From Bolinopsis microptera (taxonomy: Eukaryota > Ctenophora > Tentaculata > Lobata > Bolinopsidae): a stretch of DNA of 64,000 bases. The DNA is taken from positions 1,364,001-1,428,000 of the forward strand of contig NC_087083.1 in NCBI RefSeq assembly GCF_026151205.1, given 5' to 3'. The notes beneath the pieces were generated by a model. The model was not told the origin of the DNA. It did not search any database and saw only the letters and a program-made list of their open reading frames with translations. The translations under genes and the position numbers were made by a program. The first letter of the stretch is position 1; each line of letters begins with the position of its first letter. Positions 1-64,000 of this stretch are shown one piece after another.

Positions 1-999
1 ATGTGGGAGCAGCAAAAATGGTATAAAGATAACGTGGGCTGTCAGGAAGTTAGAGAGAATTAAAGTATTAGAATCTAGGTGAAACGGTGTTCATGGACCA
101 ACCGTGGAGAAGAAGAATTGGGAGAAAGTAATCATGATGAGAGAATAAGAGAAACATATGATTATTGAAATTGTAGTTGATGTTGGGGTGTATGAGACTT
201 ATATGTGGTAAATTCTGTTATTATAAACTTGATATAGTATAAAGTGCATTTCCTTGCCGTGTACTAGGCCTTTTTGCATGCAAAAAGACCTATATCTAAG
301 TCTAAACGATTCATTGTCTCACAAATTGGAAAATGGACATGACGCGTAATGTACCTGAAATGGAAGGCATAAAATTGAGAAAAATATTAAAACAGAGATT
401 GATTAGTTTTTTAATTTTAGCAACGTCCATAATCAAATATAAATGGAAGAAAAGATCAAAGCAATAAATTCCACAGAGAGATAATTTACAACCCTGTCAA
501 ACTGTGTTCGTTTACAACAAACTTAAGCCAAGTGACAGTAAAACCTACTCCTCTCATATTGAGATTGAAGCCAATCATGGTATAGAAGTTCATTACATGA
601 TCTAAAGTCTCGAGTTAAAAAGACTGAGAAACATCTAAACACTCAATTATTAAATTTAGGCATAATCTTTAAGTAGATTTTTAAATATCTATAACATTCT
701 TTAGGCTATGTAGGAATATAACATTTCATAGGAAGACACATATGGATAATTATAATTTGCAGCGGAAAATAACTGCTTAGTGGTGTCAATTAATTCAGTG
801 AGATACTTCTAAGAACTGAACCCCATACATATGAAATGGATGTAAATGACATTTGTACCAAACACTCATATAATTTTTTCAATATCGTCAGCTACTAGCA
901 TGCATGATTTTTATGAAAATTATGAATTTTTTCTTCAGTGATGTCGTCTAATTTTTGCACCATTTTTTTTATTTTTTTTTATCTTTTAGACTCATTTGA
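1..999. other. AT-rich non-coding stretch (F1)
   Basis: No convincing coding signal is present. Relative to LINE-C, which reads on the minus strand, this stretch lies between the candidate ORF1 (1000-1892) and the endonuclease-reverse transcriptase region that would start before the window. Its counterparts are 37720-38750 in R and 49240-50280 in F2. It could be an inter-ORF region, or the two coding blocks could belong to different elements. Confidence 0.5.
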
Positions 1000-1892
1000 A
1001 TTACGTACCTTCCCCGGACTCCCAACTATTTGTCACGTACGAATTTTGTCATTGACGTACAAACCAGGACAGTGTTTTTTTCTGCTCTTTTTCGGTTTTC
1101 TTGGAGTAATTCGTAGTAAAAGTTTTGTGTTGAGGTTGGTGGTGGCGGCATAGGAATTAGTAGTGCGGGCCAATCTGCTTCCATGGACTACATTTGTATC
1201 CTTTCTTCGTATCTGGCAGCTGAAAAGATAAGCTATACCGATCCCCTTAACTGAGCTCTCTGCACGAACATTGTGAAGACAATATTTCTGACACCCCGTT
1301 TTCATAAAATACAAACACAGTCCCTTTGGGGGTGATATAGCATTACGTTACAATCGCTTATCCCAATTTTCTGAATTATGTCGATGGTCCCTTCTCAGTT
1401 CCAAATAAACTACATAAATACCTTGCGACTGGTCAAGAGACACCTCGTCGTCGTTTGTGGAACCTAGTTATCACAAGAACCAGACTTGTTACCATGCATG
1501 CAAGGCATGATTAGCTTGCAGCCAAAACTTGGAGTTGATATCATGCATAAAGCTCTGAATCCCAGGATAATTAAAATATCGATTGCTTCCTTAGTCGTGG
1601 TTGTGACCATTTGAGAAAACCAACAAATTCTTCTCCATCCGAAGTGAGGCACTTGTGGCAGTTTTCACAGCAGTTTGCTTGGCCATAAGTGTTTCAAGTT
1701 CAGACATCAACGTGCCATGTTGAACAACTCTTGATTCTGAACAAATTCTGAATGCAACTCCAAGAAGTCCTCTGCAATTAACCAGATTTTCTCATAAATA
1801 TCATGACATTCTTCAACACTGGCCTTGAGAGCTTTCAGCTCATTTAATGAACGAGTTTAAAAACCCATTTGGTAAAAGAATTCAGATCCATA
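1000..1892 (-). pseudogene. Candidate LINE ORF1-like coding block (F1)
   Basis: A minus-strand coding block starts at an ATG (1890-1892, reading MDLNS) and shows a Leu/Glu/Lys-rich, coiled-coil-like opening with the phrase LKALKASVEECH, followed by MAKQTAVKTATSAS and a proline-rich, polar tail. The same phrases recur in R (plus strand from 36795) and F2 (minus strand from 51178), but frames differ because of indels. No zinc knuckle or enzyme motif was recognised. It lies on the same strand as and upstream of LINE-C ORF2, so an ORF1 (nucleic-acid-binding chaperone) is a reasonable guess. An unrelated element or host exon is possible. Confidence 0.35.
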
Positions 1893-2315
1893 GATGAGTG
1901 AGAATTAGGTAGGAGAAAATGGCGGTGAGGGAGAGAAATGGCGAAGTCAATACAGTATGCCCAGAAGTAGATGCGTTGCCGTAGATACAAACGGTCACGT
2001 CATAGTCTCTCTAGTCCTTTGACATTGGACACTAAAATTATTTGTTATATAGTAGTGTTTGAAAGTATTAAAAACTGAACAACAATTTTATACGAGATAT
2101 CACTCGTATGACTTTAGAAAGAAGAACAAAAAGCCCAAAAATAATATTGTTTACCAGTATCACTTTTTTCTTCCGAAAAAACACAATTAATTGAATTGCG
2201 TGAAATATAGCTTTTGCGAAATATATAAATATTTTGCATGCTTCGCATCGTCAAGATTGTTGTTTTGCAACGAAAGAGTTGACTTCGTTGATCAATTTTT
2301 TGTTGGTAGTTTATA
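1893..2315. other. Non-coding stretch between candidate ORF1 and boundary module (F1)
   Basis: This is an AT-rich segment upstream of the candidate ORF1 (which reads leftward), containing a C/T-rich leader on the minus strand just before its ATG. Its counterparts are 36375-36794 and 51179-51595. If LINE-C is a two-ORF element this would be its 5' untranslated region. No promoter motif is clear. Confidence 0.4.
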
Positions 2316-2400
2316 ACCAACCAAGGACGCGCGCCGATTGGACTCGTCCACTGGTAATATTAAAATCAAATATTTTACAAGTAATCGCCCGTTAAATTTT
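2316..2400 (+). repeat. GC-rich boundary module, copy 1 (F1)
   Basis: An 85-base module opens with an inverted pair (GTAGGTT / AACCTAC around ATA in the best copies), then GGACGCGCGCCGA, then TTGGACTCGTC, and ends in CAAATATTTTAC and a CCGTTAA box. The same module recurs in the same orientation near 8800 and 9044 in F1 and at the 3' end of LINE-C in F2 (45700). Its several self-complementary parts suggest a structured DNA or RNA, or a terminal piece of an unrecognised element. Confidence 0.6.
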
Positions 2401-3339
2401 TGTCGAAAATGGAAAACAAATTTTTATGGAAAACAAATTAAATTTTTGTAAATATTAATAAACAATCAAAACATAACAAACATAAAATAACGCCACGCGT
2501 TTGTTTGACTTGCCTCAGTAAGGTGAATTATTTACGCTGAAGGCCCTGCGCAGTTTACAGAACTTAAGCTGCACTCAGTCATTAGGACCTGTGACGCCAA
2601 AATTACTTTAAAGTTTCGAGAAATCATACATCCCTACGTGTTACTCATGCTTTTGATTATAAGAGTGCTGTTGTCAGTATTCATTCATTCAACCTTAAAC
2701 GTTTAAATCTGTATATTTAGAAACTCACCTATTGATTTAAACAACGAAGCAGAACGTAAGCATTGGAACAATAAACCGCCTACATACCAAGGACCGCCCA
2801 GTTGCCGCATTGACTTTCCCGGATCCGTTTTTTACCGAAAGGCTTATCCAACCACCAGTTACTCATGCTGCATGTATATGTCTGATATATTTGTACCTTA
2901 TCTCCTAGCAAGCAATCTGTAACTGGAGAAGTGTCGTAATTATTATAGCAAGAGCCAGCCAACCTCCGTCATTATAATCTGTTGTAATGCCAGTTCGTTT
3001 ATAAAATCTAATCATATAATAAGATTGATCCATTAGTCTTAAGATGAACGGATACATAAGCACGATCGTTATTAAAATCCCGAATGGATGAATTAATCAA
3101 TTTAATGATCCCTTTCAACACAACTAAACAAACAAACAAATGCTTGCTCACCAGTGGTGACGCAATCGTAGGGCATGCAGTGGTATCAGATAACTCTCAC
3201 CCCGACTACGGCGTCGAAATTATCAAATTAATGCATGGGATCAGGTTTGTTTGGCGCCATACTGGACACATTTTAAATTTAAATATATGTTTTTGTAGAA
3301 ATTAGTGTCTCTACTGCAGTATAGCTTAACTGCGGCAAG
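2401..3339. other. Unassigned stretch upstream of LINE-A (F1)
   Basis: No coding region was recognised. The stretch is conserved in R (35390-36290) and F2 (51680-52610). It could be the 5' untranslated part or a degraded upstream ORF of LINE-A, but no endonuclease motif was found. Confidence 0.4.
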
Positions 3340-5870
3340 CAACGACCCACTCGGCTGGGACGAAAATACCAGAGTCCCAATCACAGAAGTTAACCAAAAA
3401 TAAAAACAACAAACGCTATCGACAAGATCTGCCACCATCAACCCTATAATCACACTTATTAGAACGTTCCCCTACACTGTGGCCAACAAAATGATTCATC
3501 AGACAAAATTACTATACACTACGACGATAGTAATGCTAATAACTAAGAAGCTCTGTCTTGAAATAGAAAACGAAATAGATAGGTTCCACCACACTGTAAA
3601 CACCATTTGACTCTTCGTGCGAAGTTATTACAATAAAAGATAATTTTGCTTGCAAACATCTTAAACTCCTAGAACCACTAAACGTAACACATAACAACCC
3701 TTGGATCACCCAGGGCCTCATTAACTCCATCGAGACAAGAAGCTAGGTTGTATTTTCGAATGAAGAATGACTTGTTACAGTAAAACTACCTGATGGGGAA
3801 CCAACAAGCACATATACTACAATGAATATCGACAAGTTTCACAAGAGCACAATAAAGATGAAAAGTCTCTGTTCCTATACTCAAAAAATTCGATAAGACA
3901 GCATAACTCAAAATAGACCCTGGGAAATTATTAAATGAACCCGTGCCAAAAATATATCTAATGTAAAGACGATTTTAGGTCATAGAAGGCCAGAGAGTTA
4001 CTTGCAGACAATAATTGCTAACAAATTCCTGTGAATATTAACATCTCTTGCAAGTAATCTCAATTAAAATGTACTGTCAAACAATAGTATTTCCTCTGGA
4101 ACATCGAATCATTTGCTCATTTATGTCTAATTCGGTATCTGACACCATATACCGGAAGAAACTAATGAAGAAGAAATTAATAGAGGGATGATCCGAGTAT
4201 TTACAAAATGGTAAGCCATTGACATACCTGTAGTTGTTGTAAAAACCGGCAAAACTCATGCAGTACTTTGGCTAGAGCATTACAACACATGTATACAAGA
4301 TGGTACTTTCCCAAAGTATTTTTCAAACCTAGGTTAAAGTTATTCCTATTTACCAAGAAAGACATAAAGAATGCATTTAAAATTATCTGGCCTGTTTTCC
4401 AATATTACCATTATTTGGAAAGATCTACGAGAAGGTTATTTATAAACGCCTCTATACTATTCCTTCACATCTAAAGTAGTCCTAACAGACTCACAGTTTT
4501 GGATTAAGAAAAGGCCATTCTACCAACCATGCCTCTACACAAATCTATTTTAGACCTCCGTTACTCTAAGTCACTGTGCAAGCACTAAACATTTACCTAG
4601 TGATATTCATTGACTTGAGCAAAGCCTTCGACACCCTTGATCACGAATTCTTTTATGCAAATTAAATCCTAACGGTAATTAGGGGCACAGCACTTACCTT
4701 ACTAAAAATCTATTTAGACTAACAGAAAGCAGTATGTTATTATACTATGTCCCATCAGAAACAATGGACAGGAACTGTTGGAGTACCACAAGGGTCAAAT
4801 CTAGGCCGTTACTCTTCCTATGGAATAGAACCGATATAGTAAACTGCTTTCAGACAGTGAGATGAAAATTGTACTTGTATGCTGATTACCCTAATATCTC
4901 AGATCAGGACCATCTAAGAAGCACAGACGAATAAAGCCAACTTAGTACTTAAACATGTCTCGATTACATAAATTAAATCTACTTCATATCAATAAGTCCC
5001 AAATGCTGCTACATCCATTTTAAAACCTGCCTCTGAATATGATGACACCTGTCACGTACCAACCATAAGCTAACCTGCTGAGATGATCGAGATCCAGTAT
5101 TCATCTTATGGAAAGGTTATTACAAAGTCAAGATATACCAAATTCTAGGTGTTGTTATAGATATGTAACTAAGACGGATTGCCACAGCAACTACATCCGT
5201 AAAAAAACTGCGACTATGACTGGGCAATCTGCAGAATACGGCCTCGATACCTTTCTGAACTATATTTGAAAATATATAATGCTCTTTTGAATCACTCTCA
5301 GTTCCGGTTAAGTGTGTGGGTGTTTGTCCTCACAGAACGTCCAATGATAGTCCTTTTAATCACACAGAAGCACTGTATAGAGGATCCTTTTTGGCGACCT
5401 GACGACATAAATAGATAAACCATCAACATGTGCACCTACTCGAACCGAACGGTAAGCAAAAACTAGACCCTAAAACACCTTTGAAAAGGAACATACAAAA
5501 CCCATTTTTTATAGATTAAAAATACTTCGGCTCAAGAACTTTAACAATATAATCACTGCATTCTTAGAATTTTCTAAGATTATCAAGTACCACTGCCATA
5601 CTCCTTTAGAACTATCAACATTTCAAACCTTGCAATCGAGTCTCACGGTTATACTCCTAAATAAATCAAATACCATTTTGTTTAATGCAGCCAAGCTTTG
5701 GAACGCTGTCATATAAAAATTTAAATTCAAAGCAATTTCATAGAAACGTCCATTAGCTTGATAAAACAGAAACAAAAGCACTATTAATACAAGCACAGGC
5801 AGCTGACTTAAAAGTACTTAGGGACTGCCAAGACAATTTAAATTGCAGTAATCAAAGACTAAATTCACCG
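3340..5870 (+). pseudogene. LINE-A reverse transcriptase ORF (F1)
   Basis: Plus-strand remains of a non-LTR retrotransposon ORF2. Recognisable reverse transcriptase blocks occur in the right order: GLRKGHSTN (4501-4528), IFIDLSKAFDTLDHEF (4603-4650, catalytic Asp in FID), GVPQGS (4780-4796) and a LYADY/YADD box near 4870-4890. Upstream phrases such as PWITQGL and DPWEIINEL are typical of the linker before the reverse transcriptase in Jockey/CR1-type LINEs. An endonuclease domain was not seen. The frame is broken by many indels, which in this window may be sequencing noise rather than decay, so whether the source copy was intact is unknown. Confidence 0.75.
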
Positions 5871-5989
5871 GCGCACACTTACTATTTACTATGCAAGATT
5901 GTAATATAGACAAAAATCTTTCAGAATCGATTTTGGGCGCTTTATAACCATCTGTTGGTGAGAATCCCTTGACAGGTTTACTGGTTATC

Positions 5990-6489
5990 TTCCAGGCTCA
6001 TGACTGTCGCATTGCACTTTTGTGGCGAGCGCAGATAGTGTCTAAAAAAGAATCTTGTGCCTACGAGGGGACATCGCAATGCAGGGTGGGCTATGAATAC
6101 ACCAGATTAACTCACGAGGCAACTTCGCAAAAGCCATGGTGGCCTTGAAGTAACGCCAGCTCCTCGGGTTACTATAGAAGCCGACAGCGCTATGGGCCCC
6201 CCTTATGTACCAGATCGAACCGCAACGATCGACTAACGCCCCCAGATAAACAAAGATTGGCCGCAGTCATAAACGGAGCGGTGCGGCACAGAACGCTTCC
6301 CGCTATACCAATAACACTCACCTGACTCCACGAGACACAAACCTCGACCCGCGTTGGCGGTATTTCGATCATGACAGCCAAACGATTAAACCACTTGTTA
6401 ATTAAAGCCGTTTCTGCTTGCCATTCTCTACCTTAATAGAACCCCCCTGGTTATTGCTGCCCCCCTGTTTGCAATTTGCCGCCCCCTCG
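5990..6489 (+). other. GC-rich block before the minisatellite (F1)
   Basis: This half-kilobase is clearly richer in G and C than its surroundings and is conserved in R (32214-32730) and F2 (55250-55783). It lies between the end of the LINE-A coding region and the minisatellite. No protein was recognised in either strand. It may be LINE-A 3' untranslated sequence or the head of a separate retroelement that ends at the poly(A). Confidence 0.45.
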
Positions 6490-7015
6490 GAAGTGTAAAT
6501 GGGGAGTACGCTACAATGTGGGAGTGTAATGGGAGTATCGCTACAAATGGGAGTGTAATGGAGTATCGCTACAATGTGGGATTAATGGGCGTACGCCACA
6601 ATATGGGAGTGTAATGGGAAGTTATCGGCTACAATGTGGTAGTGGAAATGGAGTATCGCTACAATATTGGAGTGTAATGGGAGTATCTGCTACAATAGGA
6701 AGTGTAATGGAGTATCGCTCCAATGTGGGAGTGTAATGGGAGTATCGCTACAAGTTGGGAGTATAATGGAGAATCGCTACAGATATGGTAGTGTAATGGA
6801 GTATCGCTACAATGTGGGAGTGAAATTGGGAAGTACGCTACAATATGGTAAGAGTAAGGAGTATCGCTACATTGTTGAGTGTTATGTGGAGTAACGCAAC
6901 AATGTGGGAGTTGTTATGGGAGGATCGCTACATTAGTTGGGAGTGATAATTGTGAGCATCGCTACATAGTGGTCGTGCATATGGGAGTACCTACATTGTG
7001 GGAGTGTTATGGGAT
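6490..7015 (+). repeat. 29-30-bp minisatellite (F1)
   Basis: About 18 tandem, imperfect copies of a unit whose core words are GGGAGTATCGCTACAATGTG and GGAGTGTAAT. The array is bounded on the left by a CCCCCTCGG border and on the right by a non-repeated segment that runs into the poly(A). Unit-to-unit variation is of the same size as arm-to-arm noise. Confidence 0.9.
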
Positions 7016-7588
7016 TAAGTAAGAAGTTTCCACACCAGTTACCACACCAAACGGTGTAATGTGAGTAATGGCATAAATGGAACTCTCTGATTCAGAACCT
7101 TATTCCGGTGTCGTACAGAATATGAATCCTGCTCCTGTTTTATTTCTGTGACTGAGTGAGAGTCCACATCACGTGACGTTCAACAAACCCCACGTTTTAG
7201 CTTCAGCCCCAAAAGCAATATATCAATACAGTTTCCCCACCACCTAACACACAATCCAAACGAGTAGCACACCCGCAACTCCATTACAACTACGTCTCAC
7301 CAAGCTCAAGATCCCAGCATTACTCAGCACGGGCGTCATCCTTTCATGGTGTTTGAGCGCCAGGGTAACCACCCAGCACTTACCCCAATAGGTACCAAGT
7401 TAGTAAAATCACCGGAGGTGCAGAAACGCCCGATTCGGCTGATACCTTGCAGTATTATCATCCAGTGGCCCTGAGGGAAGGGCCGGAATGCAGATGGATG
7501 GACTCCAGTAGGAACGCTCCCCAAGTGGAGGGCCCGACCTCTATATTAACGGTGGTCCAGTGGTTCGCGACAAAAAAAAAAAAAAAAA

Positions 7589-7629
<41 letters not shown>
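7016..7629 (+). mobile_element. Retroelement 3' tail ending in poly(A) (F1)
   Basis: A conserved segment follows the minisatellite. Its last 240 bases are GC-rich, with phrases such as GATTCGGCTGATACCTTG and GGATGGACTCCAGTAGG, and it ends TTCGCGAC followed by 58 A with one C (7572-7629). A poly(A) on the plus strand marks the 3' end of a retrotransposed copy on that strand. It could be the 3' end of LINE-A, which would give that element a long untranslated region holding the minisatellite, or a separate SINE-like or LINE tail. Confidence 0.6.
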
Positions 7630-7630
<1 letters not shown>

Positions 7631-7639
7631 ATCTGTTGT

Positions 7640-8790
7640 AATGTTTTTAGATACAAATAATCTAAATTTAAAAATTTTTTATCGTAAATAAAATTAATTG
7701 GCATGATATTTATAATTTATTTCGGTAGTTTATCTGGTATTGATATTGATTAGTTGATATTGTAATTCTTGAACGAAGCTAACTCTAGACATAGTTAATA
7801 CTACTTTCTTTTAAGAAAGGTACTTGGAGAATAAACGAGACCAAGTTTTGCTTAAATTTCAATCCAACCAAGAACTCAGGAGCAAAGGATGGGCGTAACT
7901 TTTATGGGTCTGCCACTCTCCGATCCTGTAATCACCCTGGATTCTTCTCGACGTATCTTTGTAAAAGGTATATAACCTTCTAGTCAATACTCTTGCTACT
8001 CAAGTCCCCTAAGATATCTGATCTTAAAGTTTCGAGCTAGTTAAATATATAAAATATACTTTTGTCTGCTTAATTGATACTAATAAAAATTGTTGTTTTT
8101 TCTTAAAATGTTGATTTCTTCTTATTTAGACATCCCATATTAGCTTTTCGTCAATAATAACACCTAAAACGTGGTCTCTCTAACTTGCTTATTACCGTAT
8201 ATCAAGTTATATATATTCTGATTCGTTAACCTTGCCTCATTATCATAGCTGTACGAACCGGATTGAAGTGAATGTACAGCATTTCTTTATATTTATATGT
8301 AATAGATTGCATTTCATGTACTGGTGTACAAACGGAGAATTCGTTTGCTCTTTCATACAGTTTTTTTTCTACATTCCATCACATACGAATATGTTTGTGT
8401 ACATCTGCAAATAGTTGAACTTGCCCAGATCAGTTGTTCTAAATAAGTCGTTAACATAATTATAAATAGCAATGGTCCGAACAAAGCCTTGAGGAACTCA
8501 AAGATAACACAGCTTAGTCAGACTCTTCGCACCGAGTACAAGAAGACAATTGAAACTATTATGTCGATTTTTGAGATAACTAGCGATGAGTCCTATGCGT
8601 TTTCCACGTATTAATAGTTGTCTAGTTATTAAATATTTTTTCATGTATACGTGTCAAACGCTTTAGATTAATCATAAATATTCCAGTACATGCCTTTTTT
8701 GCTAAGACAGGATTCTATGAGTAATTCACGTGGAGTTGAGGGCAATGGGCTTCAACTGATGCAAAATAATTACCGACTGTAAATCTTTGA
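7640..8790 (-). pseudogene. LINE-B, 5'-truncated reverse transcriptase (F1)
   Basis: Minus-strand remains of a second Jockey/CR1-like LINE. The first catalytic block (LSKAFDT) is encoded at 8652-8675. Downstream in reading direction lie the YVSV, GVPQGS and FADD regions, then a thumb and tail ending against the poly(A) of the neighbouring element. The coding similarity starts only some 50 codons before the first catalytic block and abuts the boundary module at 8800, so the copy is truncated at its 5' end, as is usual for LINEs. Confidence 0.7.
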
Positions 8791-8799
8791 TCTTGTAGG

Positions 8800-8890
8800 T
8801 ATAACATACCAAGGACGCGCGCAGATGTGGACTCGCAGCGGTAATAAAGGGAAAATGAACAAATATTTTACAGTACACCCTGTTAAGACT
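8800..8890 (+). repeat. GC-rich boundary module, copy 2 (F1)
   Basis: Same module as at 2316, here reading ACCAAGGACGCGCGC, then GGACTCG and CGGTAATAA, then CAAATATTTTAC. It abuts the truncated 5' end of LINE-B. This copy is followed after about 245 bases by another module, so the two may be the ends of one small element. Confidence 0.6.
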
Positions 8891-9043
8891 TATACTTATC
8901 CGACTCGACTAAGACTTAGGGCGGCTTCAACGTCCGAACAAGATAGTGTTTTCCAAATCTGTCTATCCAGCATGAATTTTGTTATTATCCTAATTCTCAT
9001 GCTGACGTCAAGCTCCGTGTCCTTCCGAAGGAGTCAATTGGTA
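8891..9043. other. Segment between two boundary modules (F1)
   Basis: About 150 bases between module copies 2 and 3, conserved in all arms (29695-29850 and 58215-58380). It holds the words GGGCGGCTTCAACGTCCGAA and TCATGCTGACGTCAAGCTC. No coding potential was recognised. The two flanking modules are direct repeats about 245 bases apart. Confidence 0.4.
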
Positions 9044-9345
9044 GTTTATAACCTACCAGGACGCGCGCCGATTTGACCTCTCATTTTGGAACAAATATTG
9101 TAGCGCATGCCTACTGGGTCGTGCGCGCATCAATAATGCTTCTCGCAACCACAATCTAAGCAGATTCGGCGAAATGCGAAGGATTGACATCGTCACTCAA
9201 GAACAAATATTTGATAATGATTTCGTATCAAATATAAAAGATATTTTCACGCATCGTCGGCGCGCGCTTCACGCGTACAAAAAGTGGCATGCAACGTAGG
9301 TCAACAAATATTTTACGAGTGAACACCCTTACATGTCAATAGATG
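9044..9345 (+). repeat. GC-rich boundary module, copy 3, interrupted (F1)
   Basis: It begins GTTTATAACCTACCAGGACG and ends TTACGAGTGAACACCC, like the other copies, but the two halves are separated by the small element at 9100-9302, which inserted in the AACAAATATT word and duplicated it. The same interruption is present in R and F2. Confidence 0.6.
9100..9302. mobile_element. MITE E with 10-bp target duplication (F1)
   Basis: A 203-base non-coding element flanked by the direct repeat AACAAATATT (9090-9099 and 9303-9312), which is a single word in uninterrupted module copies. Its ends are loosely inverted: GTAGCGCATGCC on the left and GGCATGCAACGTAG on the right. A 9-10-base duplication fits families such as Mutator-like or P-like elements, but the ends are too degenerate to assign. 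Confidence 0.55.
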
Positions 9346-9558
9346 TAAGTGGGGGGGGGGGGGGGCATGATAGTACTTCCCCTTCTACGATGTCCCTGTG
9401 AAGGGTGTCCCGAAAGAAAATTAATGACTGCAGAAGTTTCACATACCATGTGCCTACCAGCGGACTGCTGACGCGCTTGTTTCGACGAAGTAGGATAGGC
9501 ACATACAATCCGCACACATAGATGGTACGTGTGCGCAGCGCGCATGCTGACAATAGCT
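9346..9558. other. CpG-richer stretch with a private G run (F1)
   Basis: Moderately GC-rich, with CGACGATGTCC-like and GTACGTGTGCGC words shared by all arms. The G run at 9349-9366 occurs only in F1; R (29355-29375) and F2 (58680-58700) have a mixed GGATGCAGTG-like sequence there, so it is probably a base-calling burst. No coding region was recognised. Confidence 0.4.
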
Positions 9559-9610
9559 CCGTATTTAAAACCCCGGGTGCACTAACATCGTGTCGATGAT
9601 TGGTATCTAA
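9559..9610 (+). promoter_or_regulatory. Possible TATA-type promoter (F1)
   Basis: A TATTTAAA word is followed by CCCCGGG and a purine-pyrimidine start-like site, placed at the downstream edge of a CpG-richer block. It is conserved in F2 (58890-58930, GTATTTAACCCCGG) and, less cleanly, in R (29130-29170). No transcript or ORF begins just downstream, so this could equally be chance. Confidence 0.2.
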
Positions 9611-11606: not shown

Positions 11607-11699
11607 TATCTAACAATAACAAATCCCGTAGGTCTAAAGATGTGTATTCTCAGTAAACCCATGACAATTATCAATACACAGATAATAATAACAATACGC

Positions 11700-41422: not shown

Positions 41423-41465
<43 letters not shown>

Positions 41466-52609: not shown

Positions 52610-55130
52610 GCGAGCAACAACGTCCCACTCGCTGGGACGAAAATACCGAGTCCAATCACAGAAAGTTAACCAAAAGATAAAAAACAACAAGAGCTCTATC
52701 AGACAAATCTCCAACCATCCCCCTATATTCACATCTATTGAAACTTTCCCCTGACTCTGTGCCAACACCTATTCATCAGACAAAAATGACTATACACTAC
52801 GACTATAGTTGAATGCTAACTTAGAGAAGCTCTGTCTGAAATATGAAAACGAATAGATAGAATCCACCAACAGCTGTAACACATTTGACTCTATCGTGCA
52901 GTTATTTCAAAAAAGATAGAAATGACTTGCAAACTTCTAAACTCCTTAACCAACGAAACGTAACACATAACCACTTGCTCCACCCAGGCCTTCTTAAACT
53001 CCATCGACAAGAAAGCTAGTGTTGTATTTCGAAGTGAAGAAGACTTTACATTAATACAACCTGATTGGGATCCAAACAAGCCGACATATACAACAATAAT
53101 TCGACAGTTTTTCTCAAGAGCTCAATTAAATGGCAAAGGCATGTGCTATACTCAAAACATATCTAGAGTACAGCTATTGAACTCAACAAAGACCGTGGGA
53201 AATTATAAATGAACTCGTGGCAAAAAATATATCTAGATGTAAAGACGATTTTGTCATAGATGGGCCATAGAGTACGTGCAGAACAATAATTGTGCTAACA
53301 AAATTCTGGAATATTTGTACATCTCTTGCAAGTATTCTCATAAAAAAGTACTGTCAAACAATAGTATTTCCACTGGAACCAGTAGAAAATTTCTCAGTTT
53401 ATTTCTAATATCGGTAATCTGACTACATAATGACCTGTAAGAAAACTAATGCAAAGAAAATTATATATGAGGTGATCCAGATGTTTTCAAAATGGAAAGG
53501 CCATTGACATTACTGTAGTTGTTGAAAGAAAACCGTCAAAACTCATTGCAGATAAATTTGGCTAGGCTTTACAACCACATTTATACAAAGTGGTCATTTC
53601 CCAAGTATTTTAAAACTGGTAAAAGTTATTCAATTATACCTAGAAAGACAATAAAGAATGCATTGAAATTATCGCCTGTAACATATTATACTTTATTTGG
53701 AAAGATCTTCGAGCAGGATAATTATATAAACCCTCTATAATTTCTTCACATCTAAAAGGTGGTAACTAACAACCACAGTTGTGGATTAAGAAAGCCAATT
53801 CAACCACGCCAAGCTCTACACAATCATAACCCGTTACTAAGTCCTCTGCAAGCAATAAACATGTCCTACGTTTGGATATTCATTTGACTCGACAAAGCCT
53901 TCTGACACCCTTGATCACGATAGATCTTTTAATGCAAATTAAATTCCACGGTATTAGGGCACAGCTCTACCTTACTAAAAACTATTTGTGACTAACATAA
54001 AGTGTCAGTAAGAATGTATGCACTATGTACCATCAGAAAACAATGGAACGTAAATTTGGAGTACCACAAGGGTCCAATTCTAGGGCCGTACTCATCCTAT
54101 TGTAATGAACGATATATTAAACTGCTTTTCAGACAGTGAGAATAAATTTGTACTTTATGCTGCTGACAACTAGATATCTTCTATATCAGACCATCTAGAG
54201 AACATCATACAAAAAAGCCAAACTAGTACTTAAACAAGTCCCTCGATTTACATGAAATGTAATCTAATTCATATCAAACAGGTCCAAATGCTGCTACAAA
54301 CAATTTTAAACGCAGCCTCTGGAGAAATGATGACACCTGTGCACAGACCAGACCATTTGCTATCCGCAATGAATCTAGATCATATTCAATCAATGGTAAA
54401 GTTTATTACTAGAAGTCAAGGATACCAATTCGTAGGTGTTGTTAATAAATAGTAAGCTAAACTGGATTGCCCCATCACTAACATCCGTAAAAAACTGCGA
54501 TCTATGACTGGTGCAATCTGCAGAATTCGGCACTCGCTACCTTTCTGAACTATATTTGAAATAAATAATGCTCCTTATTGAATCACATCTCAGTTACGGT
54601 ATAAGTGTGTGGGTGTTGTCCTCAAAGAACGTCCAATGATATCTTTAGTAATCACACAGAATCACTGTATAAGGAAACCATTGCGTCCTTGACACATATT
54701 AATAAACACCACAATTCACCTACATACATATCGGATGCACAAACAATACCATAAACACTTTGAAATATGAACATACAAAAAAACCCATTTTTAAATAGAT
54801 TATAAATACTTACGGCTCAAAACTTGTTACAAATATCACTGCAGTCATAAATTTTCTAAGATTAACAAGTACCACTTCCATACTCCCTTATGAGACAGAT
54901 CACATTTTCATAACCGGCACGATTGCTCACGTTATTCTCCTACATAAATCAAATACCTTTTGTTTAAGCAGCCAAGCTTTAGGAACGCTGTTCTATAAAA
55001 AAATTTTAACTTCAAGCAATTGCTTCGAAACGTCCCTTAGCATGATAATAACTGGAGAACACAAATGCACTATTCATACAAGAACAGCCAGCTACTCAAA
55101 AAGAACTTGACTCCAAACAAATTTTAAATT
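52610..55130 (+). pseudogene. LINE-A reverse transcriptase ORF (F2)
   Basis: This is the F2 counterpart of 3340-5870. The FDTLDH-type block lies near 53895-53925, GVPQG near 54056-54075 and a YADD-type box near 54150-54170. It is interrupted by indels at places different from the other two arms. It belongs to the same Jockey/CR1-like group. Confidence 0.7.
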
Positions 55131-55249
55131 GCGTAATCAAGTCTAATTGCAGCGGCGCACACTTTACTATTACTTTCAATGATTGTACTATCACAGAAAT
55201 CTTTCAATCGATTTTGGGTGGCGCTTTTTAACCATCTGTGTGGGAAACC

Positions 55250-55783
55250 TTGTCAGGTTTTACTGGTTCTTCAGGCTCATTTCTGTCGCCTCAGTGTCAC
55301 TTTGTGGCGAGGCAGCATTCGTGTCTAATAAAAGAATCATGTCCTATCGAGGACTCGCAATGCCATGGTGGCTATGAATACAACCAGTTGAACTACACAG
55401 GCAACTCGCAAAACCATGTGGCCATGATACGCCAGCTCCTCGGTTACTAAGAGCGACAGCGCTAGTGGTGGCCCCCTTCTGTACCAGGACGTCAACCGGA
55501 CAAAAAACGATCGACTAACCCCAAAATAAGCAAAGATTGGCGCGCAGTCATAAACACGGTGTGCGCGCAACAGAACTTGCTTCCCCAAGTAACCAATGAA
55601 CACTCACCGACATTCCCACAGTGACCACTAACCTCACGCCGCAGTGGCGGTATTTCGGATCATGACAAGCCAAACCGATTAAACCAAGTTGTTAATATAG
55701 CCAATCTGCTTGCCAGTCTCTAACAATAATTATGCCCCCAAGGGTTTGCTGCTCTCCCCTGTTTGTCAAATTTGCCGCCCCCT
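55250..55783 (+). other. GC-rich block before the minisatellite (F2)
   Basis: Counterpart of 5990-6489. Words such as GCCAGCTCCTCGGTTACTA and GACAGCGCTA are shared by all arms. Confidence 0.45.
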
Positions 55784-56310
55784 CGAGAGTGTAATGGGAG
55801 TATTCGCTAACAATGTGTTAGTGTAATGGAGTATCGCTACAATAAGGGAGTGTAATTGGGGGAGTACGCTACAATGTGGGAGTGATAATGGATATCCTCA
55901 ATATGGTGAGTGTAATTGTGAGTTTATCTCTACATGTGGGCGTAGTACGGGATATCGCTACAATATGGAGTGTAATGGAGTAAATCGCGACAACAATGGG
56001 ATGTAATGGGAGTACCGCTACAAATTGGGAGTGTAAATGGAGTATGCGCTACATGTGGGATTATAATTGGAGTATCGCTACAATATGGGAGGTAATGGGA
56101 ATATCGGCTACAATGTGGGAAGTGTAATTGAGTATCTCTACAATATGGGAGGTGAAACGGGAGTATCGCTAATTTGGAGTGTCATGGAGTAACGCACAAA
56201 TGTGGAGTGGTATGGGAGTATCGCACATGTGGAGTGTATATGGTATATCGCTACAATGGGTAGTGCAATGGGAGTATCTGCTAACATTGTGGAGTGTTAT
56301 GTGGAGTAAT
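55784..56310 (+). repeat. 29-30-bp minisatellite (F2)
   Basis: F2 counterpart of 6490-7015, with the same unit, about the same number of copies and the same CCCCCTCG border on the left. Confidence 0.9.
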
Positions 56311-56864
56311 GTATAGTGTTACCACACCAGTTTCCACACTCAACGTGGTAATGTGTGTAATTACATAAATGAGACCCTGGATCAAACCTGTATTTCCTGG
56401 TGCTACAATATGATCCCTGCTCCAGTTAAACTGGACAGATGTGAGAGTCCTCCTCATCGTGACGTCACAAACTCACGTTTAGCTCAGCCACCAAAGAGGA
56501 AAAAGTATACAATACATTTCCCACCACCAACAAACACACTATCCAAACGTAAGCACATCCCTCAACGCCATTATCAACCTAAGTCTCACCAAGTCTCGAA
56601 GACCACATTACTCAGACACGGGCGTCATCTTTCATGGTGTTTTTAAGACGCCAGGGTAAACCACCCAGAACTGACCTAGGGACCAGTTTAGTAACATCTC
56701 CCGGAGGTCAACCCCGATTCGGCTGATACCTTGGCAGGTATTATCATCCATGTCCCTCATGGGCAATGGTGCAAAATGCAGATGGATGGACTCCAGTATG
56801 ACGCTGCCCCCAATGGAAGTGTCGCCACCTCTATATGACTGTGGTCATTGGTGATGTATCGCGA

Positions 56865-56921
<57 letters not shown>
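56311..56921 (+). mobile_element. Retroelement 3' tail ending in poly(A) (F2)
   Basis: F2 counterpart of 7016-7629, ending ATCGCGAC and 56 uninterrupted A (56866-56921). Tract lengths of 58, 53 and 56 in the three arms are close for so long a homopolymer. Confidence 0.6.
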
Positions 56922-56923
<2 letters not shown>

Positions 56924-56924
56924 A

Positions 56925-58130
56925 TCTTTTGTAATGTTTTTTAGATCTAAATCTCTAAATTTAATAAAATTTTTTATCGGAATATTTAAATTGATTGATA
57001 TTTACTAATTTATTCGGTAGGTTTATCTGGTAAAGATATTGATTATATAGATATTGTTATTATTGAACGAAGCTAAACTCTAGACCATATTTAATACTAC
57101 TTTCTTTTAAGAATGGGACTGAGTATAAACGACCAAGTTTGCTTAAATTCTATCCAACCAAAGAACTCAGGAGCAAAGGAGGGTGCGAAACTTTTGTCTG
57201 CACTCTCCGACCTGTATCACCCATGGATTCTTCTCGACTATAACATTGTAAAAGGTATATACCATTCTAATCAATCTCTTGCTACGCAAATCCCTATAGA
57301 TAACTGATCTAAATTTCGGTGCAAGTTATATTAATAGAAGAATATACTTTGTCTGCTTTATTGATACTAAATAAAATGTTGTTTATACTTGATTGTTGAT
57401 TCCTTTCTTCTTATTTGGATCATCCATTTAAGCTTTTCGTCAATAATAACACCGAAAAACTGTCTATCTAACTTGCTTTATTACCGTATTTATTCAGATT
57501 ATATATTATTCTGATTCGTTAACTGCCTCAATATACAGTGCTGTACGTGACAGATTGATGTAAGTATCAGCATTCTTTATATTTATATGTAATAATGTGC
57601 ATTCATGAACTCTGGTGTAACAAACCGGAGAATTTCCGTTTCGCTCTTTCATACAGTTTTTTTCTACAATCAATCTACTACGAATTTGTTTGGTGTCATC
57701 TTCAAATATATGACTTGCCCAGAAATCAGTTGTTCTAAATAAGTCGGTTAACATATTATTAAAAATAGCAAGGGTCCGAGACAAGGAGCCACAATGGAAC
57801 TCCAAAGAGAACAGGGCACCCCAAAAAGCCTTTTTTTTATGGGGGTCAGACTCTTCGCCCCTTACAGAGACATATTGATATCTATTAAGAGAGATAACAC
57901 GATGATCTATTGGCGTTTCCCACGTTATTCCATAGTTGTCTAGTTTATTAAGTAGTTTTTCATGTGAGATCTTGTCAAACGCTTTAGATAGATCAATGAA
58001 ATGTTCCAATTACATGCAGTTTTTTGCTAAGACAGGGAATTCTATTTGTAATTCACTGAGGATTGAGGGCATGGCTTCGAACTGATTGGCAAAATAATTA
58101 TACTCGAACTAATCTTTGATCTTGTGAAGG
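56925..58130 (-). pseudogene. LINE-B, 5'-truncated reverse transcriptase (F2)
   Basis: F2 counterpart of LINE-B. A single open stretch of 167 codons (57506-58009, minus) begins MEHFIDLSKAFDKISHEKLL and continues through NRYQYVSV, a damaged GVPQGS region, LTDLFRTTD, an EDDT remnant of the FADD box and LLHINIKNAD. It is the longest readable piece of this element in the window. It matches the non-LTR reverse transcriptase palm from the first catalytic Asp to beyond the second. Confidence 0.8.
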
Positions 58131-58215
58131 TTTATAACATACCAGACGCGCGCCGAATTGGACTCCGTCAGCGGTAATAAAGGGAAAATGGAACAAATAT
58201 TTGTACGAGTATCAC
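58125..58215 (+). repeat. GC-rich boundary module, copy 2 (F2)
   Basis: Counterpart of 8800-8890: GTTTATAACATACCAGACG, CGCGCCGAATTGGACTCC, GTCAGCGGTAATAA, ending CGAGTATCACCCGGTTA. Confidence 0.6.
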
Positions 58216-58437
58216 CCGGTTACAGACTTATAATTAACCGACTCGACTAGACTTAGGGCGGATTCACCGTCCGAACAGAGAATAGTTTTTTCCAAATCTG
58301 TCTATCCAGCATGAATTTGATAATTCCTAATTGCTCATGCTGACGTCAAGCTCCTGTCCTTCCGTAGGATGTCAATTTTGTAGTTTATAACCAAACCAGG
58401 ACGCCGCGCGATTTGACTCCTCAATTGAACAAATATT

Positions 58438-58638
58438 GAAGCGCGAAGCACTACTGGGTCGGCGCCATCAAATAATGCTTCTCGCAACCACAGATCTAAT
58501 CAATCGGCGGAAATGCGAAGAGAATGACATCGTCACTCAAGAACAAATATTTTGATATATGTGTTCTATCCAAATATCAAAGATAATTTCCGCCTTCGCC
58601 GCGCGCATCAAGCCACCAAAGTGCATGCAACGTAGTTC
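58438..58638. mobile_element. MITE E with target duplication (F2)
   Basis: F2 counterpart of 9100-9302, with AACAAATATT exact on both sides (58428-58437 and 58639-58648). Confidence 0.55.
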
Positions 58639-58929
58639 AACAAATATTTACGAGTACACCCGTTAAATTCAATATATGTAAGGTGCAGTGTAGTACTCGC
58701 CTTCGACGATTGTCCTTGAAGGGTTCCCGAAGGAGGAAGAGAAAGATGATGACTCAGAAGTTTCACATAGCCATGTGCCTACGCGTACTGCGTGACCGCA
58801 TGTTTCACAAGAAAGGGATAGGCCACAAACAGATCAGCCCACATAAGATTGGTACGTGTCTGCGCGCGCGCAGTGCTGACAATTAGCGTCGTATTTAACC
58901 CCGGCACGTACATCTTGTTCGATGATTGT

Positions 58930-59514
58930 CTATTAGAGGGTTTATGTCTATCACGAATTTTTTGAAGACGATGAAATCAGAAATACAGGAATTGTGTACA
59001 ATAAGGAAATTAGAAATTTTTTAAAAATCCACGATTGAAATACAATTTTGAATTCAACAGAATTACATAAAAATAAAAGTATTCTTTGTTATTATAAAGA
59101 AACTAAAAGAGGGCCCGTTGTCACACAAAGGAAGCTAATCGTAATTTTTTATCATTTTTTAATCGCATCAAAAATATCTTTCACGACCGAGTATACAGCC
59201 CATTAAAGTAAATATAGCTCGCAATGAACACAACTATAATTACCACAACGAATAATTACACAAAACCGATAAAAATGATCGTTTAACAACTTTTCACGTG
59301 CGGTCGTACAATGTACAAAGATCATTCTAGAATTAGTAGAAAGATAGTTTTTACCAATTTGAAATTGCAGGTAAATAAGTTTCAAATGATACGTCATGAC
59401 TGCTAAATACAAATTCGTACATAAACAAATAACATGTACTAAATAACTACAGACAATTTCATAGAAATGATTACGAGATTACAAGATTGAAAGTATAAAT
59501 AAAACGAATTACAT
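58930..59514. other. AT-rich non-coding stretch (F2)
   Basis: Counterpart of 9611-10185. Nothing was recognised. Confidence 0.45.
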
Positions 59515-59765
59515 CACACTTCGTGTCCGCAAGAAACGGATTCATTTATGCATAACATATAACATATAAACAATCCGTGACCGACAACGCTATCCATCCG
59601 GCCGTCACAATAACTCGCGATCAGTAAGAAAAATAGGTAAGATCTTTCAGTCCAACATTTGACTACGTGATCATAGGAAACAGGTTATATCTGCAGTCCC
59701 AACATTGACTTCGAATCAGAAAGAAACGGGGTTCATTCCTGCAGGCCAACTCCGACCGTATGCTG
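59515..59765 (+). repeat. About 47-bp minisatellite (F2)
   Basis: F2 counterpart with the same CGTGATCA, AGAAACAGGTT and CTGCAGTCC words. Confidence 0.65.
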
Positions 59766-60356
59766 AAAAATACCTGCATCCATTGACATAATTACTCAAC
59801 TTAAATGTAATCTACTAAATCTGGACTACTAAAACATCAAATGATAATTTCAGCCCCTATCACATGATCGTGCAAATTTAATATGCGTAAGAACAATTTG
59901 TTCTTTACTACTGACCGATCGGATAACTGGGAAGTTAGGGAAATAGTGAACTAATAATATATTTTCACAATAAATGTATTTCAATTTTAATTGCCGGTGT
60001 TTGTGACGTATAGTTTAAACATTGACACTGAAATGAATGCGAAGATACTCAAAGTGCAATAGAAAAGTAAGTGCTAGGTTGATCAGGACGAGCTTAGTGT
60101 TGGCAGTTGAGCTGAAGACAATTTACACAAGTATCTTTGAAAGCTCCTGCTAATAAAAACCTTCATATCACTTGTATTTTTAAATATCCCCTCCAGTTAG
60201 TGGTAGTGTGGTGCAGATGCAGAGCGCACGGGGGCGATGTGTCGCTCCAACGCTACACTCTTAATTCTCGGTTGACCGTGCAAACTGCAAGGCATAAGCA
60301 GAAGATTTTCTATTTTCAAAGTAGCTACTATACTATCAAAAAAAGCTTGTAGGATC
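59766..60356. other. Non-coding stretch before the private insertion (F2)
   Basis: Counterpart of 10433-11050. It aligns with the other arms up to the AAAGCTTGTAGGAT word, then is lost in the homopolymer burst. Confidence 0.4.
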
Positions 60357-60590
60357 CCCGGGGGGGGGGGGGGGGGGGGGGGGGGCCCCCCGGAAAAAAA
60401 AAAAGGGGGGGGGGGGAGGGGGGTTAATTGGAAAACATAAAAGTAACTGTAAGTAGTTAATTGTTGTAGATTAGTAATGAGAGGAAATTAAAGTATAGTC
60501 AATAGAAGTTGTGTGTGTATAGTTAGTTAAGTTAACGTAGTATATAACGGTATTAAAAATAGTTTGGGAAAGAATTCGTTATGTCATCTG
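60357..60590. other. Private homopolymer burst and non-aligning segment (F2)
   Basis: Long G runs, a short C run and an A run (60357-60425) are followed by about 165 bases with no resemblance to the matching part of F1 (11050-11236) or R (27509-27700). It is most simply a low-quality part of a single-molecule read. Confidence 0.6.
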
Positions 60591-63500
60591 GAACAAATTA
60601 TAACAAGTTTTGTCTACAGAATTGTTTTTGTCATGTCCCAGGAACCACAAAAAAATCCTCCACTGAAACTTTGGCAATAATTTTTATAGTCATTTTTTCT
60701 CAGGAACACATAAACGCCCCACCCCTAAAAATTGGTTATTCGGCTCCCGAAGTTCTTGAGATCTCTCCATAAGGGTGAAAAATGACCGCAATGGCCACAT
60801 TATGGCAGTCGAATGATAAGTTTCAGAACATGGACTTTTATTTTTCGAAATAAATGAATTTTTTCGAATTTTTCTCAATTTAGTAAATTATCGAAAAAAA
60901 ATACACCATATGTATTTTTAACACGCTTTATTTCAAATCTATGTAAAACTACTTACTACAAATAACAAATACAGTTAGTCTAAAATTATTTCCCTCAGTA
61001 AGTAACATGACAATTATTAATACACATTTATATTTATCAAAATCGCTTGTTCTTCAGTTTCATCATGTCTAATGTTTGTGCAGTTCATACCATGCATCGG
61101 TCACAAAGCCTGCAAACATTGAAGCCATATTTCCTACATGAACATTCATAAAGTAAACAGGCCTTTTCCACATCGACAGAACAGTTACACATATAAGGTT
61201 CAAAATTAGACTCTGTGCAAACTGTTTTAAGTGCCACCAGAGCCCAATTTCCAGCCGTAGTCAAGGGATTCAGACTCTCTCACCTCTTAACATGACTCAG
61301 TTATATGGTACAGTAAGTAAGTCTCTAAGGATGTGCTTCCCGGTGCCTGAAGCTATTGTTGGAGGTAGTCCTATTTCGGATTGATACTCTTTTTTTCTCT
61401 ACCATACCTATTGTAATCTAGGAAGCTCAAAGCAGAAAGAGTCTTTTTTCTTGTCTCCATAAATGTACTCAAGAAACATAGCCGTGCCTCAAAAATATTT
61501 TCGTTTGATTCTCTCACCGAAATAATGTTTGCCAACAGAACTAGCTCAACAAAGTGAGAGCTTTCTTTAGCACTTTACCCTAGCTAAAACCAAACAGACC
61601 ACAGACGCTATCACAACCTGAAAACTATGATTAAAAAGTATCTCCTTTTCTATATCTAGTGACTTGAGATTTCTTTGATTGAAAATTTACCCTTCTTCGT
61701 TGTAGATAAATATCATTGTGATGTCACTGTTGCATGAAGGTACTAATAGACTTGAACTATATCGGTAACCTCTCCTTCACTCAAATCGCCCAAGGATGAC
61801 ATTTTCCAATGTTTTCTTTTTCAATTAAAGTATCAGCAACGTTACAAGCTCGACACTTCAATACCATAACAGTAAAAATGCTTGAGAATATAAGGTCGAT
61901 CAGTTCTATTTTTGTTATTGATGTTGCTCAGAAAATTCTTTTGGTGGACAGTACAAAAGTGGGATTTCTTTACATCAATATTAGCACAGAACTCTTTTTA
62001 CTCTCCTCTTGTCTGTGATCTTTAGTATAAGTCTCAATCCCATCAAAAATCACAGTATAACTTCCGATTTTTAGGGATAAAGCTTCAATACTCCATTGCT
62101 ACCGTCACCATAATTTGTCCCCACCCTTAAATTGAGCTTTTAGTGTGGTGAATTAGCCACCTCCATCAATGACTAAGTGGATCGTGAAGCTGCAAAATTT
62201 AAAAAGAGTAGATTGGTTTATACCAAGAGCATCCTTATTTAGATTTCCTCCATCATCGTGATATAGATCAAATAAGCTCATCGGTCACCACAGTAACTCG
62301 TATGGTAATTGCAAATCCTCTATTGAAGTCTCTCTACAGCAACCAAGACTAACGGTTAAAACACTTCAACGGATCGACGATGCAAAGCTTTATTATTCCC
62401 TTTAACCTCTTTCTAGTTGTGTCAAGTCTTGTACTTTACCGTTAGACCTTATCTTATCGATGAATGTCAACTCCAACTAGCTCACGTTGAAGGACAGCCC
62501 CAACGCCAAACATTCCTCGGGATTCACCTCATCGTTCGCCGAGGCTGTGATATAAGACCATCGAAACAGATATTAACTTAGATCCTTTCTATCTTCGATT
62601 CTGTAAAGTCGACAGTAACTTTAAACCAAGTTATAAATTTTATCCAAATACATCACAGTTTTCTTGATAGATGACTTGTAAGATCTCATGGATGCCCAGC
62701 ATTATTGGTACACCTCGCATCGATGAATTAGCTAAATGTAATCTCCAAAAACTGATATTCAAGCCATCTGATTCCGGTGCCACCCATAACTGTGACGGAC
62801 CTCACGATTACGCATCCTTCCACTTGTTAAAATGCCACCACTATATTAGCCGCCCTCATAAGACTCTGCTCTATGGGAGAGGACAGTCCACACTCCGGCC
62901 CACTCGTGACGTTTAACAAACCGTTGTGAAGCCCAGTTACATTATAGGTCTTATAAAGCGCCCCATACTAACTAAAAAGTAGCATCCTGCCACCAAATAC
63001 AGTCTAAAGCTTTGCATACTTCCCCTCCCCCAGCTGGCTGCAGAAGTAGCAGCATCAAAGCTACTGCTGATAAATAGCATATTGTAGTCGTGCAAAGTCA
63101 ACCTCACTGCTCTATGAAGGTCCATTTACCTAGTGTAATCATGTTGAGTGGTAATAATACCCATAGAGCTGCTGTACTACTGGTTTTGAAACAGTACTTT
63201 AGAAGCAGAGTTATTTTCTCTGATAGATCCTGAATAGATATCTTAAAGTTATCGACCTATATTTTCGTTCAACGTACATTTTGATGTAACCTACCAAGTC
63301 TATAGTACATCGTCGTAAACTTCTTCCTCTATAATGAAACACCAAAGACCGGCGTCGATCAGAAAGTGGCTCTCAACCTTTATTAGTAAGATCCTCCATC
63401 CGATAACTGGCGTGACAGTCTCCAGGATAACACTTAGTTTGAATGAGTCCACTAAACCCGATCCTGCCATTAAAATAGCCTAAGCAGCCAAGAAAAACTC

Positions 63501-64000
63501 GTGAATTGGAAAAGCCCTCAACCCTGACCACATAGCATCCCAGTTTCCATACTATTTCGGGTGGCCTTAAACCATAATGGCAAATCGAATGTGATTATCA
63601 TCGCTCACTGTAGGAATAACTTTTTAAAGACATTCAAACCAGAGTAGCATGTACGTCGAATAGCTGTCGTGGTTGGTGCAAAAATCGTTTGCTTGTTAGT
63701 TAACCTAGATATTGTAATTGATTTTATTTCCCGAGTAAGATTTGAAAAGCGTTACAAAATAATTTGTGTATTTTTTTCTGTAATATCAATAAATTGAGCA
63801 AAATTATGAGAAAAATTCCATTTATTTCGAAAAATAAAGCCCCAAATGTTCTGAAGCTATCATTTCCCCTGGACCATAATGGTGGCCATTTGCGGTCATT
63901 TATGCACGCCCCATGGAGAGCTCAAAACAACGGAGTCCGAATAACCATATTAGGGTGGGTCGTATGGTTTTTCTCCTGGATAAAATTGAACTATTAACAA
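60591..64000 (-). mobile_element. Long-TIR DNA transposon (F2, cut by window end)
   Basis: F2 counterpart of 11237-14771. The left TIR is at 60591-60950. The right TIR begins about 63735 and runs out of the window. All internal landmarks are in the same order as in F1. Confidence 0.75.
61050..63660 (-). pseudogene. Coding region of the long-TIR transposon (F2)
   Basis: Minus-strand counterpart. This arm gives the cleanest cysteine-rich tail: CSCRKYGFNVCRLCD is encoded at 61100-61144, close to the end of the protein. Such a tail usually binds metal. It sits beyond a region of LPPT- and LTL-type phrases, as in related invertebrate transposon proteins. Confidence 0.5.

What the first reader, a model, noticed from the sequence alone, without database searches (positions are those of the whole stretch)
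1..64000. One 24.6-kb unit in alternating orientation: two giant palindromes sharing an arm
F1, R and F2 are the same unit in +, -, + orientation, with dyads near 19431 and 44041 and a full period of about 49.3 kb. Every landmark (poly(A), minisatellites, three LINEs, transposon TIRs, MITEs) keeps its order and spacing. If genomic, this is an inverted-repeat array of unusual size. If technical, the record is one molecule copied back and forth.
Basis: partly seen in the sequence, partly recalled or inferred. Interest (0 to 1): 0.75.

Follow-up and report, generated by a model that had tools for sequence, protein, structure and literature searches.

The report
Raw sequencing read pasted into genome
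The giant back-and-forth palindromes are most likely not chromosome structure: they look like one uncorrected long sequencing read that went round and round a single 24.7-kb DNA fragment and was then pasted into several chromosomes of the assembly.

Summary
In detail: the window is one ~24.6-kb unit in -,+,- orientation relative to its source, with dyads at ~19,431 and ~44,042. It is an artefact. The window lies inside C10:7557363-7683530, which goes back and forth over one clean locus, C5:4152765-4177427, at 86.8-89.0% identity with about one gap opening per mismatch. In the read's own direction forward and reverse passes share one substitution spectrum (T>A ~34%, G>T ~19%; 13% transitions, against 52% among clean paralogues). 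Substitutions coincide between passes as chance predicts (206 seen, 205.3 expected). Junk bursts occur in single passes. Slices of this noisy text lie in at least ten places on eight chromosomes (100% identical over the probe at eight, two inferred). Six turns seen use the same two points, with one-sided loops of ~242 and ~47 nt, short microhomology and no visible adapter: as expected from rolling-circle reading of a dumbbell closed by its own folded ends. The assembly resembles the ctenophore Bolinopsis microptera (13 chromosomes), whose published pipeline used PacBio reads, wtdbg and TGS-GapCloser. Most likely an adapterless PacBio molecule, never split into subreads, was used raw to fill gaps. 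Not a real genomic feature.

The parts
1..19455 (-). Pass over the source locus in minus direction (part of the pass that begins at C10:7593266), ending at C5:4152767
   Evidence: 87.2% and 87.9% identity (two scorings) over the whole pass C10:7593266-7617915
19405..19463 (.). Low turn: ~47 nt of minus-strand sequence without partner, 3-nt microhomology (CAA), no adapter found; dyad ~19431
   Evidence: the same turn at C10:7568668 and C10:7667300
19464..44163 (+). Pass over the source locus in plus direction, C5:4152823 to 4177426
   Evidence: 88.6-89.0% identity in two HSPs
41419..41566 (+). Junk burst (poly-G / GT), absent from the C5 locus and from the other three passes that could be measured at this site
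   Evidence: 344 bases here against 197, 203 and 208 for 200 bases of C5
43921..44163 (.). High turn: ~242 nt of plus-strand sequence without partner, 5-nt microhomology (AAAAG), no adapter found; dyad ~44042
   Evidence: the same turn at C10:7593267 and C13:15412258
44163..64000 (-). Pass over the source locus in minus direction, from C5:4177180; runs on past the window to C10:7667295
   Evidence: 87.5% identity over the whole pass
60356..60557 (-). Corrupted stretch (runs of G, C, A, then poorly matching sequence)
   Evidence: 338 bases against 301-316 in the other five passes for 300 bases of C5; another pass has a 17-base burst close by

Best explanation
The window is the raw, uncorrected text of one single-molecule long read, most likely PacBio CLR. 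The template was a 24.66-kb genomic fragment (C5:4152765-4177427) whose two ends had closed on themselves. Each 3' end folded back, annealed by a few bases and was joined to the other strand, leaving ~242- and ~47-nt loops of its own sequence in place of hairpin adapters. The polymerase went round this dumbbell about two and a half times on C10 alone (about 3.3 times if the overlapping slices on C11, C10 and C13 are one read), giving alternating passes. With no adapter at the turns, software did not split it, so it stayed one text of >=126 kb (>=165 kb on the same assumption). A gap-closing step then cut slices of it and pasted them into at least ten places. Shown: a clean source, fixed turn points, a read-direction error spectrum, independent substitutions, identical noisy slices elsewhere. 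Inferred: platform, end-closure chemistry, gap-closing step, species.
For: Clean source: six passes on C10 map to C5:4152765-4177427 at 86.8-89.0% with ~1 gap opening per mismatch, while a genuine element copy on C10:7729950 matches C5 at 99.4% with 0 gaps. Error spectrum: 671 of 5144 substitutions are transitions (13%); T>A is 33-36% and G>T 19% in read direction for both pass directions, so in the locus frame the spectrum flips with pass direction. Clean paralogues of the same assembly: 382 of 741 (52%) transitions, 8.6 mismatches per gap opening, 39 pairs. Independence: same-substitution coincidences over 15 pass pairs 206 seen, 205.3 expected; no site of 24,350 covered by four or more passes has one substitution in three or more. 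Error even along the unit, 6.3-9.6% per 3-kb bin. Junk bursts: a 148-bp and a ~64-bp one, each in one pass and not in the others measured. Listed copies of element families elsewhere (capped lists) stand at 85-90% from the passes. Slices 100% identical over the probes on C13, C12, C11, C5 (two places), C10 (the window's and a second) and C3; C8 and C6 inferred from hits with the score and query range of a known pass. Slices that I read at their ends start and stop at different points and pass into other sequence. Six turns (three low, three high) agree within ~20 bases and have the same one-sided loops. A 120-nt clean high-turn junction has no listed match above 89% across the join (40 scored candidates); its halves match C5 separately at 100%. 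A second contig, C20, matches C5 at 96.3% straight through the high turn. Precedents, passages seen only: missed/missing SMRTbell adapters among the causes of palindromic reads (PMC6218980); PacBio substitutions lean to transversions, nanopore ones to transitions (PMC7671305, PMC8486125); LR_Gapcloser fills near 88% identity (PMC8848313).
Against: No reads were available, so that the slices are one read is inferred, and only probes were compared, not every base. Deletions coincide between passes 1.5 times more than chance (580 vs 391.5 summed over 15 pairs); I read this as homopolymer context. The mix of errors (3.3-5.6% substitutions, 3.5-5.1% insertions, 3.2-4.2% deletions by scoring) is less insertion-rich than published RS II data, and its three similar rates resemble the nanopore rates in the same paper; the transversions raised there in PacBio are A-C and G-T, not the T>A that leads here (PMC7671305). 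The adapter alignment covered only the two turns in the window; the other four turns were only looked at. It is unclear how sequencing was primed without an adapter; a nick is a guess. Clean flanks of the C10, C11 and C13 slices show no overlap with the read at the thresholds used, so how slices were anchored is not shown. TGS-GapCloser normally error-corrects candidates (PMC7476103) and its benchmark fills with simulated reads average 92.8-97.3% (PMC8848313), higher than here.
Confidence: 0.95

Rival explanations
1. The array is real: an old inverted amplification (breakage-fusion-bridge or palindrome-driven) on C10 whose units have diverged by 20%.
For: Order and spacing are kept over several units, and the turn points are constant.
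Against: Divergence is indel-rich, even, star-like and read-direction specific, with no shared substitutions beyond chance; the same text occurs 100% identical over the probes on other chromosomes and is cut at different points; listed element copies elsewhere are about equally far from the passes.
Confidence: 0.01
2. The read is noisy but true: a real inverted array (or a natural hairpin-ended linear DNA) of the C5 locus exists in the animal, and only the base-level noise and the placement are technical.
For: Turns are at the same two points and show no adapter; a hairpin-ended DNA read round and round would look like this.
Against: The clean high-turn junction has no match above 89% in the assembly (the low-turn junction was not searched); C5 runs on beyond both turns and C20 runs through the high turn; the array text does not leave the unit in 126 kb; the loops lie on the same strand at each turn, which fits reading round one closed molecule rather than an array made by fold-back copying (inference).
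Confidence: 0.03
3. The dumbbell was copied by rolling circle during whole-genome (multiple displacement) amplification, then sequenced.
For: Amplified DNA is reported to give reads with up to 15 palindromes (PMC6218980, passages); fold-back with microhomology is typical of it (recalled).
Against: The paper that fits the assembly has no occurrence of 'amplif', 'low-input' or 'REPLI-g' in its held main text (PMC10232365); its supplements were not seen. It would change the chemistry, not the verdict.
Confidence: 0.08
4. An ordinary SMRTbell read in which adapters were present but not recognised.
For: Missed adapters are a known cause of palindromic reads (PMC6218980, passages).
Against: The recalled adapter scores at most 18 and 25 of 90 near the two window turns, against 33 for the best place in the window (no shuffle control); turn sequences read straight from one strand into the other with 3-5 shared bases.
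Confidence: 0.05

Closest known systems
Palindromic PacBio reads from missed or missing SMRTbell adapters (Pacasus, PMC6218980, passages seen)
   Same: One insert read alternately on both strands with raw error; harms assembly if not split.
   Different: Here six passes on C10 alone over a 24.7-kb insert, with genome-derived fold-back loops where adapters should be.
Raw-read gap fills left by gap closers (LR_Gapcloser, PBJelly, TGS-GapCloser; benchmarked in PMC8848313, passages seen)
   Same: Unpolished inserted sequence joined abruptly to clean sequence; the 87-89% seen here is that of LR_Gapcloser fills (~88%) and the lower end for PBJelly.
   Different: Here the filling read is itself a palindromic chimera and lies in ten or more places; identity is below the published TGS-GapCloser means (92.8-97.3%, simulated reads).

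Membership tests
Uncorrected single-molecule read in an assembly | ~10-15% error, indel-rich, even along the sequence | tested here: met
Uncorrected single-molecule read in an assembly | Substitutions independent between passes and tied to read direction, not to the locus | tested here: met
   206 vs 205.3 expected coincidences; spectrum flips in locus frame. Deletions do coincide in excess (580 vs 391.5)
Uncorrected single-molecule read in an assembly | Clean true copy elsewhere in the assembly | tested here: met
   C5:4152765-4177427
PacBio rather than nanopore read | Transversions favoured over transitions | tested here: met
   13% transitions, against the contrast in PMC7671305 and PMC8486125; but the leading class, T>A, is not the one named there
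PacBio rather than nanopore read | Insertions dominate over deletions and substitutions | tested here: not met
   Roughly equal rates; PacBio is inferred, not asserted
Missed-adapter SMRTbell read | Adapter sequence at the turns | tested here: not met
   for two turns (adapter recalled from memory); four turns looked at only
Genomic inverted-repeat array | Divergence with biological substitution pattern and shared derived changes | tested here: not met
Genomic inverted-repeat array | Independent reads spanning unique flank into array | not testable with these tools
   no reads held

The most novel reading that the evidence does not exclude
A natural hairpin-ended linear DNA, or a real inverted amplification, of the C5 locus exists in this animal and was caught by one long read.
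Probability: 0.03. Interest if true: 0.6.

Novelty: not a real feature. Interest (0 to 1): 0.08.

Why it matters
It warns that at least ten stretches of this chromosome-scale assembly, about 0.5 Mb by my sum from hit positions (assumes each slice is continuous between its outermost hits), are raw read text. Gene, repeat, inversion and synteny analyses there would be misled. The read-direction substitution test used here can separate such text from real palindromes without any reads.

Tried and rejected
Adapter at the turns: the SMRTbell adapter as recalled was aligned to the window only and not found at its two turns. DNA folding of the two loop zones: high end unremarkable (z -0.31, 69 of 200 shuffles as good), low end weak (z -2.18, 6 of 200), so strong hairpins do not explain the turns. 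Exact start and stop of each slice: only some found (C11 15009480-15054741, C13 15314294-15435043, C10 7557363-7683530, C3 15799661-15800270, C12 right end ~1449970); long queries score few candidates and missed known copies, so counts of places are lower bounds. Fold-back copying as the source of the array was rejected by reasoning: it would put the next high loop on the other strand. Paper searches for adapterless or missing-adapter molecules gave no direct hit in their listings; sought gap-filling artefacts. Rows left out: HSPs of 1000 bp or less; pairs under 200 bp or 80%, and tandem repeats there may be counted more than once; HSPs of 700 bp or less.

Full report
OBSERVATION. Self-BLAST of the window confirms two long inverted repeats sharing an arm and a direct period of ~49.3 kb. 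Arms are ~80% identical, and gap bases exceed mismatches. The window is C10:7598461-7662460 of a 264.65-Mb, 232-contig genome.

SOURCE. Probes from the window find a copy on C5 at 87-88%. With 70 kb of C5 and 130 kb of C10 fetched, plus the window, BLAST shows C10:7557363-7683530 running over C5:4152765-4177427 as six passes -,+,-,+,-,+, the first and last partial (HSPs of 1000 bp or less not used). HSPs are 86.8-89.0% identical, with a gap opening about every 18 bases. Outside the array, C10:7729950-7731603 matches C5 at 99.4% with no gap, so C5 is clean there. C5 also keeps a two-frame LINE: 460 aa with a GDSL lipase domain and 1171 aa with endonuclease and reverse transcriptase. In the noisy passes the 1171-aa frame matches only as low-identity pieces, and the longest ORF listed in the window is 167 aa (8 of at least 120 aa).

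READ ERROR, NOT DIVERGENCE. (1) 671 of 5144 substitutions (13%) are transitions, summed over six passes. Among 39 clean paralogous pairs of the same assembly 382 of 741 (52%) are. (2) T>A (33-36%) and G>T (19%) dominate in C10 direction in plus and minus passes alike; expressed in the locus frame the spectrum flips with pass direction. A mutation process on the locus cannot know in which direction a read will pass. (3) Coincident substitutions between passes: 206 seen, 205.3 expected over 15 pairs; no site of 24,350 covered by four or more passes has the same substitution in three or more. Coincident deletions are in excess (580 vs 391.5), which I read as homopolymer context. (4) Error is even along the unit, 6.3-9.6% of locus sites per 3-kb bin. 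(5) Junk bursts: a 148-bp poly-G/GT burst (window 41419-41566), a ~64-bp poly-A burst (C10:7572134 on) and a G/C/A-rich corrupted stretch (window 60356 on) are absent from C5. At the first two sites the other passes that could be measured have normal length (three and five passes). At the third the other five have 301-316 bases for 300, against 338, and one of them has a 17-base burst close by. (6) Listed members of element families elsewhere are 85-90% from the passes; the lists are capped.

MANY PLACES. Identical slices (100% over the probe) lie on C13, C12, C11, two places on C5 and a second place on C10, and a 610-bp slice lies on C3. C8 and C6 are inferred from hits with the same score and query range as a known pass. 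With the window's own array that is ten places on eight chromosomes. Ends read: C11 15009480-15054741, C13 15314294-15435043, C3 15799661-15800270, C10 7557363-7683530. Only probes were compared, not every base. Taken as one read, the overlapping slices of C11, C10 and C13 span ~165 kb and at least seven passes. A C12 copy shown was missed by a long query, so the number of places is a lower bound.

THE TURNS. Three low turns and two high turns on C10 and a third high turn on C13 agree within ~20 bases. Plus passes run to ~4177427 and minus passes restart at ~4177180; minus passes run to ~4152765 and plus passes restart at ~4152815 (alignments begin at 4152812-4152830). The unpaired loops (~242 and ~47 nt) lie on the same strand each time, and 5-nt (AAAAG) and 3-nt (CAA) microhomologies sit at the joins (read by eye). 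No adapter was found at the two window turns (adapter recalled) and none is apparent at the other four. Rolling-circle reading of a closed dumbbell gives this; fold-back copying would reverse the loop at the next turn (inference). A 120-nt clean high-turn junction finds nothing above 89% across the join, only noisy slices; its halves match C5 separately at 100%. C20:14924-17500 matches C5:4176817-4179366 at 96.3%, straight through the high turn. The low-turn junction was not searched.

ORIGIN. C1-C13 sum to 258.07 Mb, 97.5% of 264.65 Mb, and C14 and C15 are under 0.2 Mb. Bolinopsis microptera has n = 13, 13 chromosome-scale scaffolds with 97.23% of bases and a k-mer genome size of ~254 Mb. Its assembly used wtdbg, HiRise, TGS-GapCloser v1.1.1 and Pilon; PacBio CLR, HiFi and Iso-Seq libraries on Sequel II are named for the study as a whole, and that Bolinopsis was the CLR one is my inference from wtdbg against hifiasm for the sponges (PMC10232365, passages). 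The percentage is close but not equal, and no sequence comparison was made, so the species is likely, not shown. TGS-GapCloser cuts a candidate segment out of an aligned read and says that a long read may give several candidates, normally with correction (PMC7476103, passages). Benchmarks give ~88% identity for LR_Gapcloser fills and 92.8-97.3% mean for TGS-GapCloser with simulated reads (PMC8848313, passages), so if TGS-GapCloser did this, correction was off or failed here. Missed or missing SMRTbell adapters are named, with false positives, as the source of palindromes in 0.5% of reads of an unamplified control set (PMC6218980, passages). PacBio substitutions lean to transversions (A-C, G-T) and nanopore ones to transitions (PMC7671305 and PMC8486125, passages); the T>A lead here is not named there, and the rates of the three error kinds here are more even than in those PacBio data.

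VERDICT. The structure in the record is real as text and technical in origin. A read with no adapter at its turns would not be split, which would also make it one of the longest in its data set and attractive to a gap closer (inference).

Noticed in passing
L031 (C3:15800270-15800520): About 250 bases of almost pure C/T follow directly on the 610-bp slice of the same noisy read on C3; it may be another read burst or a true CT repeat.
   Followed up: partly
L031 (C3:15799299-15799477) and C10:7556949-7557126: The clean left flanks of the C3 slice and of the C10 slice share a ~180-bp repeat at 87.7%; such a shared repeat might be how one read came to be anchored at several gaps.
   Followed up: no
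L014:178-5173 (C5:4170178-4175173): Two-frame LINE whose first frame carries a GDSL lipase/esterase domain and whose second carries endonuclease and reverse transcriptase.
   Followed up: partly
L014:7583-8701 (C5:4177583-4178701): Tubulin-tyrosine-ligase family frame begins ~157 bp beyond the high turn point, outside the unit.
   Followed up: no
L051 (C20:14924-17500): Small contig matching C5:4176817-4179366 at 96.3% with different element content to its left; perhaps the other haplotype of the locus.
   Followed up: partly
L013:5046-5655 (C5:4165046-4165655): Short-period minisatellite open in two frames; it is one of the landmarks repeated in the passes.
   Followed up: no
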